Origin: Methanosarcina mazei S-6
Lineage (GTDB): Archaea > Halobacteriota > Methanosarcinia > Methanosarcinales > Methanosarcinaceae
Direction of reading: 5' to 3'
NCBI RefSeq assembly: GCF_000970205.1
Contig: NZ_CP009512.1
Location: 2,728,001-2,792,000, forward strand
DNA: 64,000 nt
Position numbers and translations under genes: made by a program
Shown: positions 55,736 to 60,624 of the stretch, in pieces
Numbering within the stretch: the first letter of the stretch is position 1
Layout: each line of letters opens with the position of its first letter
The notes under the pieces: model-generated
Databases searched by the model: none
Seen by the model: the letters and a program-made list of their open reading frames with translations, nothing else
Told to the model about the DNA's origin: nothing

Positions 55736-57010
55736 ATGAAAATAAGATTAAAAGGAACTAATCTGCTACCTGTAGCCCTGTTTTTACTGATTATGTTAGC
55801 TGTACCTGTATTAGGTGCGCAGGAAGAGACATTGAATGAGACTAAATACGCTGACACATCAGGTGTGATCAGCGTGGATAAAGCTGAAGAAGTTGCGGCT
55901 TACTCTATAAAAGAGATTTCTGGATCTATATCAGATTTATCTGAATGGAAAGACGCAACTGTGGAACTATCTACTATTTACTACGATTTTGATGGTAATA
56001 GGTCGGCTTATTCATTTAACGTTATGAAAAATAAGCAACAAGCAGGATATATTTTCATTTCAGCGACGAAGGATAACTATCCAGTTCTGGAGTTTTCAAA
56101 AGGCAAAATACCTAATGAAATACCAGAATTGACGATTCGTTCAAAATCACTGGCAAAAGAGCGTGCTGATAAGGAAGATCTGACTGTTGGAGAGATGAAA
56201 CCTCTTTATTTAGGCCCAACATTTTACTACGCAGAGTATACACTAACCGATACAAAAGGTAAAGCCAAAGAAAAAGTAATAGTGGATTTGCCATTTTCAA
56301 CTGTAGTAGACTTCAATAAGTCAAATGTTAGTGTTCCTGAAGATAAGAAAGACTACTATTTTAATGATACATCTTTACAACAGCAACGAGAAATAAGGAA
56401 GCAAGACGCAAATGCAAAATGGAAGTCCATAGAGGAAAGAATGACTATGGAAACAATTCCTGCAGGCTATACATCTACTAGAAGTATCGGCTATATTTAC
56501 GATGTACCTAATTATCCCTAGCGCAATGGCTGCTCTCCAACTGCAGCTGGAATGATACTAGGGCATTGAGACAGTAATGGATATCCTAACTTTCCAGGAG
56601 AAACTACACTGATAGATGAATTAGCGAACGCAATGGGCACATCATATAAATGGCCATTTGGAGATGGAGCGACTTGGCCATGGAATATTGGACCTGGCAT
56701 AGAGACGGTTTGTAATAATCATGGATACAGTAATTTTGATGCAAGCTATGTTTGGTACTCAATCCCATGGAACGATGTAAAAAATGAAGTGAATGCCAAT
56801 AGACCATTTGTTATTTGTATGTTATATGGTGGATTAGGTAGCGGGTACCAGCCAGGTCAAGAATATGGAAACCATTGTGTAACCTGTATTGGATATTCCG
56901 ATGGTAGTCAGGATTATGTATTCTTACACGATACATGGGATACCGAAAATCATCATTACATAGCTTTTGGCAGTTGGTGGGAAGCTACGGCAATATGGGT
57001 GAGACCTTAA
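55736..57010 (+). pseudogene. Exported papain-like (C39-type) cysteine protease, two nonsense codons
   Basis: One frame of 425 codons runs from ATG 55736 (AGAAGGTGA ribosome site) to 57010, interrupted only by TAG at 56519 and TGA at 56567. Part 1 has a signal peptide (about residues 10-27, ending VLGAQEE) and a pro-region. The catalytic part then reads VPNYP-stop-RNGCSPTAAGMILGH-stop-DSNGYPNF, with Cys in NGCSPTAA, His in GNHCVTCIGYSDG and Asp in LHDTWD. The TAG falls where papain-like enzymes have the oxyanion Gln (CAG to TAG) and the TGA where Trp is likely (TGG to TGA). TAG can be read as pyrrolysine in Methanosarcina, but the TGA would still stop synthesis before the His. Most likely a young pseudogene. 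Confidence 0.8.
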
Positions 57011-57033
57011 CCACCCCATATATTTTTATTTAA

Positions 57034-57150
57034 TAGGACTTACGCACTTGAGGATTAAAATCAGCATCAATAGACCTTGCTGTCAAACCATTGATTTAGA
57101 CAGTTGAAGGTTTAGAGTTGTTGTTTTTAAGTTCAACCGCGTAAGTCCTA
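57034..57150. mobile_element. 117-bp MITE with 18-bp inverted repeats and 5-bp target duplication
   Basis: The ends TAGGACTTACGCACTTGA and (reverse complement of the right end) TAGGACTTACGCGGTTGA match at 16 of 18 positions. TTTAA flanks both sides (57029-57033 and 57151-57155). The interior is 81 bp and cannot encode a transposase, so it must be moved by an enzyme from elsewhere. It sits 24 bp after the protease pseudogene. Confidence 0.8.
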
Positions 57151-57463
57151 TTTAATTTAGAACAGGCAAATTTTTCTCAATTGCAGAGCCCTATTATATG
57201 GGTAATGAAGAAGGAAAAGTTGATGGCTTAAACAAGGGGAATAAAAAAGAAAAAGGCACTCGTTATTTCCATGGTTTTTAATAAAGCTTCAGTTTCTAAA
57301 AAAGATGTTCGATTGATTATTTTTGGATATGGTATTCAGAGAAACAACTTTGGATTTTGAGATGAGTTCTCTTTTCCAATTGTATTTTTCGGCCACTACA
57401 TGAGATAAAAATTAAAGAGCAGAAAGCGGAGTTCAGTAATAGAAATACAGGTGTTATAATAAA

Positions 57464-57593
57464 GAGCTTATCCTAAAACTCAAAATCGGCTCTCCGAATC
57501 TTGAATCTGAAATAGTCAATCGAGTCACAGATAATGAAAACAATTCTGAAATTTTGACCGATGAAGGGATAAAATATGTTTTGGGATGAGCTC
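57464..57593. repeat. 130-bp segment bounded by 16-bp inverted repeats
   Basis: GAGCTTATCCTAAAAC at the left and the reverse complement of the right end GAGCTCATCCCAAAAC match at 14 of 16 positions. No clear target duplication is seen. The interior reads as about 40 stop-free codons (for example IGSPNLESEIVNRVTDNENN) ending in the right repeat, so it may be a remnant of an insertion sequence or a gene end. The rest of the 57151-57636 gap shows no gene. Confidence 0.5.
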
Positions 57594-57636
57594 AAATATA
57601 AACATACCAATAATGAACCACCGAGAAGGTGACATA

Positions 57637-59934
57637 TTGAAAATTAAAACCTATTCCATTATCGCATTTTCGTTTCTGTTAATATATGCAAACACTGTTG
57701 CGGCGGATACGATTACTGTTGATAACAATGGAAATGAAAATTATACCTCTATACAGCAAGCTGTAAACAACTCTGTCGATGGAGACACAATAATTGTTAA
57801 TAAAGGAACATATATTGAAAACATAGACATAGATAAGAAGTTAGCAATAATCTCAAAGTCGGGAAATCCGGAAGATACAATAATTCAAGCTCTTCATCCA
57901 TATGATCATATTTTCCATGTAACTGCGAATAACGTGACCATCAAAGGGTTTGGTTTGAAAAATTCCAGCTCAGGAAGTGGAATTTATCTGGACAGTGTGC
58001 AATATAACACTGTTGCAAACAACCATTTACAGGCTAATGGGATAGGAATCTATCTCTGGGGTGCTGCTAAAAACAATATACTAATTAATAACACAGCATC
58101 AGACAATAGCTGGTCAGGAATCCGATTGTCTCCAGATGACAGTGAGCTTGCAAGCAACAATACACTTATTAATAACACAATGGTCAACAATAAATATAAT
58201 TTTGAGATTTATACTGGGTATGAAAATGCTAGTATGCAGAACAATATCGATACTACCAATACTGTAAATGGAAAACCTATTTATTATCTTGTAAATGTTT
58301 CGAATATTACTTTAAATTCTGCCTCAAATGCTGGGGCTATTTACTGTATCAACTGCCAGAACATGTCAATAAAAGATCAGGTTCTCCAAAATAACTCCCA
58401 GAGCATTGCTTTATTTAATACAAGCGATTCAAGGTTTGATAGCAACATCCTATCAAATAACGCCGTTGGAATCATTCTGTTTAACTCAGATAATAACACC
58501 GTGTTGAATAATATTGTAGTTAATAATATTATTGGCATTGGAATAGTTAAATCCACTGATAATTATTTAAGTAACAACGTGGCAAATTCTAATATCGTTG
58601 GATTTGATGTTCATGAATCAACAAATACTGAATTAAATAACAACACAGCAAATTTTAATAAAGATAACGGCATAACTTTGAGTTCTTCTATACAAAATAA
58701 AGTAAATGGAAATATTGCAAATCACAATGGTGGTGGAATTAAATTATTCAATTGCAGTAATAGCTTGCTAAACAATAATATTGCAAATTCAAATAGGTAT
58801 GCAGGTATTGATCTAGGGAGCTCAAGAGACAACATTCTAACTGATAATATTGCAAATTCAAACAGGGAACATGGCTTTGAACTTGCTGGCTCAGATAACA
58901 ATACTTTGAGAGGTAATATTGAGAATTCAGATATGGATCATTTACCAGATGATTCTCCTAATCGTACTTCTAAGAATGAGACTAAAGATCAGGATATAGA
59001 AAATAAATCTTTCATTGATTCTACAATTTCTGCAATTTTATCCTGGATATATCCCAATAATTCTCCTGATAATGATAGTAATAATTCGATAAATAATTTT
59101 CTTGATAATATCAGTGATGATTCAATAAATGTCTACGTACACCCTGGAGACTCGATCCAGCAAGCAATAGACAATTCAAGTTCTGGCGATATTATTGCTG
59201 TTCACCCGGGATTATATAAGGAGAACCTTGTTGTGGACGAATCTCTTATTATAATTTCAAAGCCTAGAGAACAGACTGAAACTATAATTCAGGCTGCAGA
59301 TCCGGAAAAGGATATTTTCCATGTAGTTGCCGACAATGTGACAATTAGCGGGTTCAATGTGACAGGAACAGACAAGTCAGGCATATGTTATACCGGGTCT
59401 GGTGGCATTATCGCTGGCAATAAACTGCTTTCTGACAGATACGGAATTTATCTGAAAAAAGCCGAAAACATTACAATTGAAAACAACAATGCATCTCAAA
59501 ATGGATGTGGAATTTGCTTGACAGACTCCAGCAGAAATAAACTGGTAAATAATGAAGTAAGTTATAATTGGTTCAAGTGGGGAAAGTATAGAAACGGGAT
59601 CCTTCTTAAAAATTCAAATAACAACAAGCTAACAAGTAATAATGTATCGAGAAACTGGGATGGTATACGCCTCGAAAATTCTTCAAACAATGAACTGAGC
59701 AAAAATGCAGTTATAGATGACTATTTCTGTATTAGTCTTAGAGATTCAAATAATAATAAACTTCTTGACAATAACGTCAAATCAATCGGGTACTCATTTG
59801 AAATCACGCTGGGGAAATCTCATAATAATACTTTGCGAGGTAACAGTGCAGGCTTTATGACTGAAGTTAAAGTATCGTCTGGTCCTGAGAGTACAAACAA
59901 TACACTCGAAGGAAAGCAACATATTAGAAGATAA
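57637..59934 (+). CDS. Exported surface protein with two NosD-like beta-helix domains
   Basis: The 765-aa protein has a signal peptide (KTYSIIAFSFLLIYANTVAA) and two right-handed parallel beta-helix regions. Each opens with a SIQQAV(N/D)NS..GD.I.V..G.Y.ENI module (about residues 30 and 500), followed by many Asn-rich turns of the type NNTLINNTMVNNKYN. About 60 residues between them are acidic and low in structure. N-glycosylation sequons are abundant. There is no C-terminal anchor or PGF-type sorting motif, so it is secreted or held by contacts. TTG 57637 has GAAGGTGA upstream; the earlier in-frame start at 57586 lies in the inverted repeat and has none. Confidence 0.8.
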   Translation: MKIKTYSIIAFSFLLIYANTVAADTITVDNNGNENYTSIQQAVNNSVDGDTIIVNKGTYIENIDIDKKLAIISKSGNPEDTIIQALHPYDHIFHVTANNVTIKGFGLKNSSSGSGIYLDSVQYNTVANNHLQANGIGIYLWGAAKNNILINNTASDNSWSGIRLSPDDSELASNNTLINNTMVNNKYNFEIYTGYENASMQNNIDTTNTVNGKPIYYLVNVSNITLNSASNAGAIYCINCQNMSIKDQVLQNNSQSIALFNTSDSRFDSNILSNNAVGIILFNSDNNTVLNNIVVNNIIGIGIVKSTDNYLSNNVANSNIVGFDVHESTNTELNNNTANFNKDNGITLSSSIQNKVNGNIANHNGGGIKLFNCSNSLLNNNIANSNRYAGIDLGSSRDNILTDNIANSNREHGFELAGSDNNTLRGNIENSDMDHLPDDSPNRTSKNETKDQDIENKSFIDSTISAILSWIYPNNSPDNDSNNSINNFLDNISDDSINVYVHPGDSIQQAIDNSSSGDIIAVHPGLYKENLVVDESLIIISKPREQTETIIQAADPEKDIFHVVADNVTISGFNVTGTDKSGICYTGSGGIIAGNKLLSDRYGIYLKKAENITIENNNASQNGCGICLTDSSRNKLVNNEVSYNWFKWGKYRNGILLKNSNNNKLTSNNVSRNWDGIRLENSSNNELSKNAVIDDYFCISLRDSNNNKLLDNNVKSIGYSFEITLGKSHNNTLRGNSAGFMTEVKVSSGPESTNNTLEGKQHIRR

Positions 59935-60384: not shown

Positions 60385-60624
60385 ATGCCAACTAGAACGA
60401 TCTGCATAAGTGAGGAAGCTTATGAAAAGCTTAAAAGCCTAAAAACCACTGAAAAGAACAGCTTCTCAGATGTTATTCTCAAGTACTATCCTAAAAAAAG
60501 AAAGCTTTCGGAAGTGCTCGCAGAAATAGGCACCAACCCCGAACTCGCAGATGCAATCGAAAAAGCTTCGAGGGACATGAGAAAAGCAGAGACGAGGAAA
60601 GTTGATCTTGATGCCGGTGCTTGA
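60385..60624 (+). CDS. vapB: VapB-type antitoxin (DUF217-like)
   Basis: The 79-aa protein begins [20 protein letters not shown], a ribbon-helix-helix or AbrB-like antitoxin start seen in archaeal DUF217 antitoxins. It has a C-terminal segment ([20 protein letters not shown]) that would bind the toxin. ATG 60385 is used; the longer frame from 60313 has no support. It overlaps vapC by 14 bp. It would neutralise and autorepress with VapC. Confidence 0.78.

What the first reader, a model, noticed from the sequence alone, without database searches (positions are those of the whole stretch)
55736..57010. Exported cysteine protease interrupted only by in-frame TAG and TGA
A 425-codon papain-like frame is intact apart from TAG at 56519 and TGA at 56567. 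Each is one transition from the residue expected (Gln of the oxyanion hole; Trp). Because TAG can code for pyrrolysine in this genus, the first lesion alone would not be a certain null, and the site would place pyrrolysine in the active centre. The TGA makes the usual pseudogene reading more likely. The absence of frameshifts suggests recent loss, or strain variation.
Basis: partly seen in the sequence, partly recalled or inferred. Interest (0 to 1): 0.6.

Follow-up and report, generated by a model that had tools for sequence, protein, structure and literature searches.

The report
Decaying archaeal cysteine-protease pseudogene
A gene for an exported papain-like protease in a Methanosarcina genome has been disabled by two point mutations that turned two conserved tryptophan codons into stops; it is an ordinary, fairly recent pseudogene, not a case of pyrrolysine in an enzyme's active site.

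Summary
The frame at 55736-57010 is as described: 425 codons, with TAG at 56519 and TGA at 56567 as its only internal stops. It derives from an exported zymogen: signal peptide, prodomain, then a papain-like Peptidase_C39_2 domain. Relatives correct one key claim. Both stops replace tryptophan: the seven closest homologues with an open catalytic domain have TGG at both sites, so the TAG is not a lost oxyanion Gln.

The genome encodes PylRS and tRNA-Pyl, but reading TAG as pyrrolysine adds only 15 residues beyond it before the TGA and never reaches the catalytic His/Asp. The locus is eroding in other ways too. A repeated 125-bp element lies 20 bp downstream, the gene that normally follows is reduced to its last ~100 bp, and the sister species' copy at the same locus has lost both ends. 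The catalytic half still bears the mark of past purifying selection, so the loss is recent on its branch.

One distant homologue has TAG at the same codon, but it is an eroded copy in an archaeal family with no PylRS. Verdict: ordinary pseudogene. A stand-alone exported prodomain is not excluded but lacks support. Strains could not be compared.

The parts
55736..57010 (+). Interrupted frame of an exported papain-like (Peptidase_C39_2) protease, 425 codons with the stop
55736..56518 (+). Open part upstream of the TAG: signal peptide and prodomain, 261 codons
   Evidence: prodomain by alignment of an intact homologue with prostaphopain B
56519..56521 (+). In-frame TAG where the closest homologues have TGG (Trp)
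56531..56533 (+). Codon of the presumed catalytic Cys (TGC), preserved
56567..56569 (+). In-frame TGA where the closest homologues have TGG (Trp)
56570..57007 (+). Rest of the catalytic domain, with presumed catalytic His (56873-56875) and Asp (56930-56932)
57030..57154 (+). Repeated element of about 125 bp with inverted ends (MITE-like), 20 bp after the stop codon
   Evidence: 12 other matches in the same genome
57180..57278 (+). Remnant of the 3' end of the gene that follows the intact protease gene in relatives
   Evidence: 84% DNA identity over 100 bp, E 7.5e-25

Best explanation
It is a recently inactivated pseudogene of an exported papain-fold protease zymogen, in a degrading stretch between fpoO and a NosD-like gene. 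Two G-to-A transitions turned conserved Trp codons into TAG and TGA. Translation of any transcript ends at the TAG before the catalytic Cys, giving at most an exported prodomain without enzyme. Suppression by tRNA-Pyl would end 15 residues later at the TGA, still without the catalytic His and Asp. Shown: the lesions, the Trp codons of the relatives, decay of the neighbouring sequence, and decay of the sister species' copy at the same locus. Inferred: that no functional protein is made, and the order of events.
For: Two different in-frame stops at sites that are TGG in the seven closest homologues. Both Trp invariant in 13 diverse homologues. The window differs at 17 of 95 columns invariant in six relatives, including Y277H next to the TGA. 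MITE-like element and a mere remnant of the neighbouring gene. Sister species copy at the same locus has lost both ends. Broken copies are common in the genus. Prodomain half evolves at dN/dS 0.6-0.8, not distinguishable from 1.
Against: No frameshift and no further stops. The catalytic half, downstream of the TAG, shows dN/dS 0.14 on the window's branch, significantly below 1; this is explained by a long branch with a late loss, but would also fit a still-decoded frame. A paralogue at 45% identity is intact elsewhere, so any function may be covered or never needed.
Confidence: 0.93

Rival explanations
1. The TAG is decoded as pyrrolysine next to the active-site Cys (with some read-through of the TGA), giving a full-length protease under conditions in which Pyl is made.
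For: PylRS and tRNA-Pyl are encoded in this genome. The catalytic half shows past constraint. A distant homologue has TAG at the same codon.
Against: The TGA follows after 15 more codons and the tRNAs recovered include no UCA anticodon (not exhaustive). All other catalytic-domain homologues with Trp-type motifs have TGG there. The TAG-bearing distant copy is eroded and no genome of its family has PylRS. No stable fold after the TAG. The published precedent for TAG plus a second stop was judged a pseudogene (PMC1914089).
Confidence: 0.01
2. The 261-residue product ending at the TAG is still made and exported as a stand-alone prodomain, acting like a Spi-type propeptide inhibitor on the paralogous protease.
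For: The upstream frame is intact with a Shine-Dalgarno-like AAGAAGGTGA before the ATG. Prodomain-plus-protease layout resembles prostaphopain B and SpeB zymogens. Weak, sub-threshold match to Inhibitor_I69 (E 0.11). An intact paralogue exists in the genome.
Against: The prodomain half shows relaxed, not stronger, constraint on this branch (dN/dS 0.6-0.8 against 0.25-0.29 elsewhere). The sister species copy has lost its signal peptide.
Confidence: 0.05
3. One or both stops are sequencing or assembly errors and the gene is intact.
For: Only one assembly of this species was available; the frame is otherwise open.
Against: It would take two substitution errors 48 bp apart in a single-contig genome, beside independent signs of decay.
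Confidence: 0.01

Closest known systems
Peptidase_C39_2 (Pfam PF13529) exported proteases of Methanosarcinales, e.g. L109 of Methanosarcina spelaei
   Same: Same signal peptide, prodomain and catalytic domain; about 65% identity over the whole length
   Different: Window copy has two nonsense codons and a degraded surrounding
Staphopain / streptopain-type zymogens (papain fold)
   Same: Model of an intact homologue aligns over prodomain and protease domain with prostaphopain B, Z 13.0, rmsd 4.8, 220 residues
   Different: About 11% sequence identity; archaeal; not shown to be a member of those families
CobN homologue once proposed as a pyrrolysine protein (discussed in PMC1914089)
   Same: In-frame TAG plus a second, different in-frame stop, and the amber form in one species; judged a pseudogene
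   Different: Different gene; here the codons of the intact relatives are identified
Pyrrolysine methyltransferases MtmB, MtbB, MttB
   Same: In-frame TAG in a genome with PylRS and tRNA-Pyl
   Different: There the TAG is conserved across species as the only internal stop; here it is private, replaces Trp, and is followed by a TGA

Membership tests
Peptidase_C39_2 / papain-fold cysteine protease (ancestry) | Profile match above the curated cut-off | tested here: met
   53.2 bits against cut-off 24; intact homologue 75.2 bits
Peptidase_C39_2 / papain-fold cysteine protease (ancestry) | Catalytic Cys, His and Asp in order | tested here: met
   Codons preserved at 56531, 56873, 56930; invariant in 13 homologues
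Peptidase_C39_2 / papain-fold cysteine protease (ancestry) | Papain-like fold | tested here: met
   Model of the intact M. spelaei homologue, Z 12-14 to staphopains, C39 domains and cathepsins over residues 250-417
Peptidase_C39_2 / papain-fold cysteine protease (ancestry) | Oxyanion-hole Gln | tested here: inconclusive
   No conserved Gln in the motif before the Cys; invariant Trp at C-4; coordinates of the model not examined
Pyrrolysine-containing protein | PylRS and tRNA-Pyl in the genome | tested here: met
Pyrrolysine-containing protein | TAG conserved in homologues of other Pyl-using species | tested here: not met
   TGG in the closest homologues; single other TAG in a lineage without PylRS
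Pyrrolysine-containing protein | TAG is the only internal stop, open frame to the end | tested here: not met
   TGA at 56567
Pyrrolysine-containing protein | Pyl residue seen in the protein | not testable with these tools
   Needs mass spectrometry
Pseudogene | Disabling lesions relative to intact homologues | tested here: met
   Two nonsense codons at invariant Trp sites
Pseudogene | Relaxed constraint | tested here: inconclusive
   Prodomain half not distinguishable from neutral; catalytic half constrained over most of its branch
Pseudogene | No functional product | not testable with these tools
   Needs proteomics or ribosome profiling

The most novel reading that the evidence does not exclude
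The TAG has turned a protease zymogen gene into one for an exported stand-alone prodomain that controls the paralogous protease, a step towards a Spi-like inhibitor in an archaeon.
Probability: 0.04. Interest if true: 0.45.

Novelty: new member of a known kind. Interest (0 to 1): 0.14.

Why it matters
It removes a tempting candidate for pyrrolysine in a protease active site and shows why: the relatives have Trp codons at both sites, and a second, different stop follows. A genuinely decoded TAG would have been a pyrrolysine protein outside methylamine metabolism, which is why the check was worth making. As it stands it is one more decaying accessory gene in Methanosarcina.

Tried and rejected
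Gln at the TAG site: rejected by all close homologues. Pyrrolysine on the strength of the same-codon TAG in L115 (= L151): rejected after finding that copy eroded and its family without PylRS. A stem-loop after the TAG: folding energy no lower than shuffles. NCBIfam gave no family. The sequence search of solved structures gave only weak matches to papaya proteases. Viral contigs gave one distant homologue with Trp at both sites. Papers: no mention of a guessed Gö1 locus tag for this gene was found. The tRNA survey is not exhaustive (52 matches listed; intron-bearing genes were not called by ARAGORN), so a UCA suppressor tRNA is unlikely but not strictly excluded.

Full report
Observation. The frame 55736-57010 was translated directly: 425 codons including the final TAA, with internal stops only at TAG 56519 and TGA 56567. 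The other two forward frames of the same stretch hold 35 and 38 stops, so the open frame is the relic of a real gene. It matches intact homologues over its whole length in five other Methanosarcina genomes at 64-65% identity, E about 1e-160. The genome is a Methanosarcina, most probably M. mazei: F420H2-dehydrogenase (fpo) genes lie just upstream (named here from their sequence and general knowledge), and its PylRS matches PDB 2q7e without a difference over nearly the whole aligned domain (that 2q7e is the M. mazei enzyme is general knowledge).

What the gene was. The product would be an exported zymogen: signal peptide, prodomain and a Peptidase_C39_2 domain. The model of an intact homologue from M. 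spelaei (mean pLDDT 77) aligns over residues 250-417 with staphopains, C39 peptidase domains and cathepsins at Z 12-14, and over residues 40-417 with prostaphopain B including its prodomain, Z 13.0, rmsd 4.8 over 220 residues. The presumed catalytic Cys, His and Asp are invariant in 13 homologues, and their codons survive in the window at 56531, 56873 and 56930.

What the two stops replaced. In a codon alignment the seven closest homologues with an open catalytic domain have TGG at both positions. Among wider homologues reaching Archaeoglobus, Methanoculleus and a few bacteria, the TGA site is TGG almost without exception. The TAG site is TGG in most, and the others show no Gln there. Both Trp are invariant in the 13-sequence alignment. 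About a fifth to a third of the mutational chance of nonsense in this gene falls on TGG codons, so this is unremarkable.

Can it be pyrrolysine? PylRS and tRNA-Pyl are present, so suppression at the TAG is possible. It would add the Pyl and 15 residues and stop at the TGA, before the His and Asp. One surprise needed checking: a homologue at 48% identity from a Methanosarcinales MAG (L115, the same place as L151) has TAG at exactly the same codon. That copy has lost its N-terminus and carries substitutions in otherwise conserved motifs, such as HDTR for HDTW. None of the 17 genomes of its family has PylRS above the cut-off. It is a parallel nonsense mutation in another decaying copy. A given nonsense mutation would hit this exact change about 1% of the time, so the coincidence is mildly notable but tolerable given the several broken copies examined. 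The literature holds a matching precedent: a CobN homologue proposed as a Pyl protein was judged a pseudogene because a second, different stop was present and only one species had the amber form (PMC1914089).

Decay around it. The element at 57030-57154, about 125 bp with inverted ends, has 12 other matches in the genome and begins 20 bp after the stop codon. In four relatives examined the protease gene is followed by a gene of about 220-230 codons. In the window only its last ~100 bp remain, at 57180-57278 behind the element (84% identity, E 7.5e-25). In Methanosarcina sp. UBA10923 (G006; L008, L117) the same locus after fpoO holds a copy without signal peptide and without the catalytic half; it runs on into the VapB-like gene that lies at 60385 in the window. 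Around the intact copies of the other relatives no fpo gene was found in the 11-14 kb taken. Broken copies and fragments are frequent in the genus.

How recent. A two-ratio codon model gave dN/dS on the window's branch of 0.83 for the prodomain half, or 0.61 when the UBA10923 copy splits the branch; neither is distinguishable from 1. For the catalytic half it gave 0.14 (2 delta lnL about 11 against 1; upper 95% limit near 0.35). That branch is long, so the catalytic half was under selection for most of it and the stops are late events (inference). The two halves differ in divergence from the main relatives (82-85% against 70-72% DNA identity), and the stretch just after the TAG is 89% identical to L009, which suggests past recombination between copies and makes a precise date unsafe.

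Conclusion. The pseudogene reading is well supported and the pyrrolysine reading is not. A residual possibility is that the exported 261-residue prodomain is still made and used; nothing here shows selection for it. Strain comparison, the most direct test, was not possible because one genome per species is held.

Noticed in passing
57030-57154: MITE-like element of about 125 bp with inverted ends, 12 other matches in the genome.
   Followed up: partly
57586-59934; L020, L021, L022, L042: C39-like protease genes are often followed by a NosD-like beta-helix gene, a recurrent gene pair of Methanosarcinaceae with no assigned role.
   Followed up: no
L115 3673-3675 (same place as L151): A distant homologue has TAG at exactly the codon of the window's TAG; eroded copy in a family without PylRS.
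   Followed up: yes
55736-57010, halves before and after 56519: The catalytic half is more diverged from the main relatives than the prodomain half, hinting at recombination between copies.
   Followed up: partly
homologues of 56519-56533, alignment A2 residues 262-266: This C39-like subfamily has a near-universal Trp 4 residues before the catalytic Cys and no evident oxyanion Gln.
   Followed up: no
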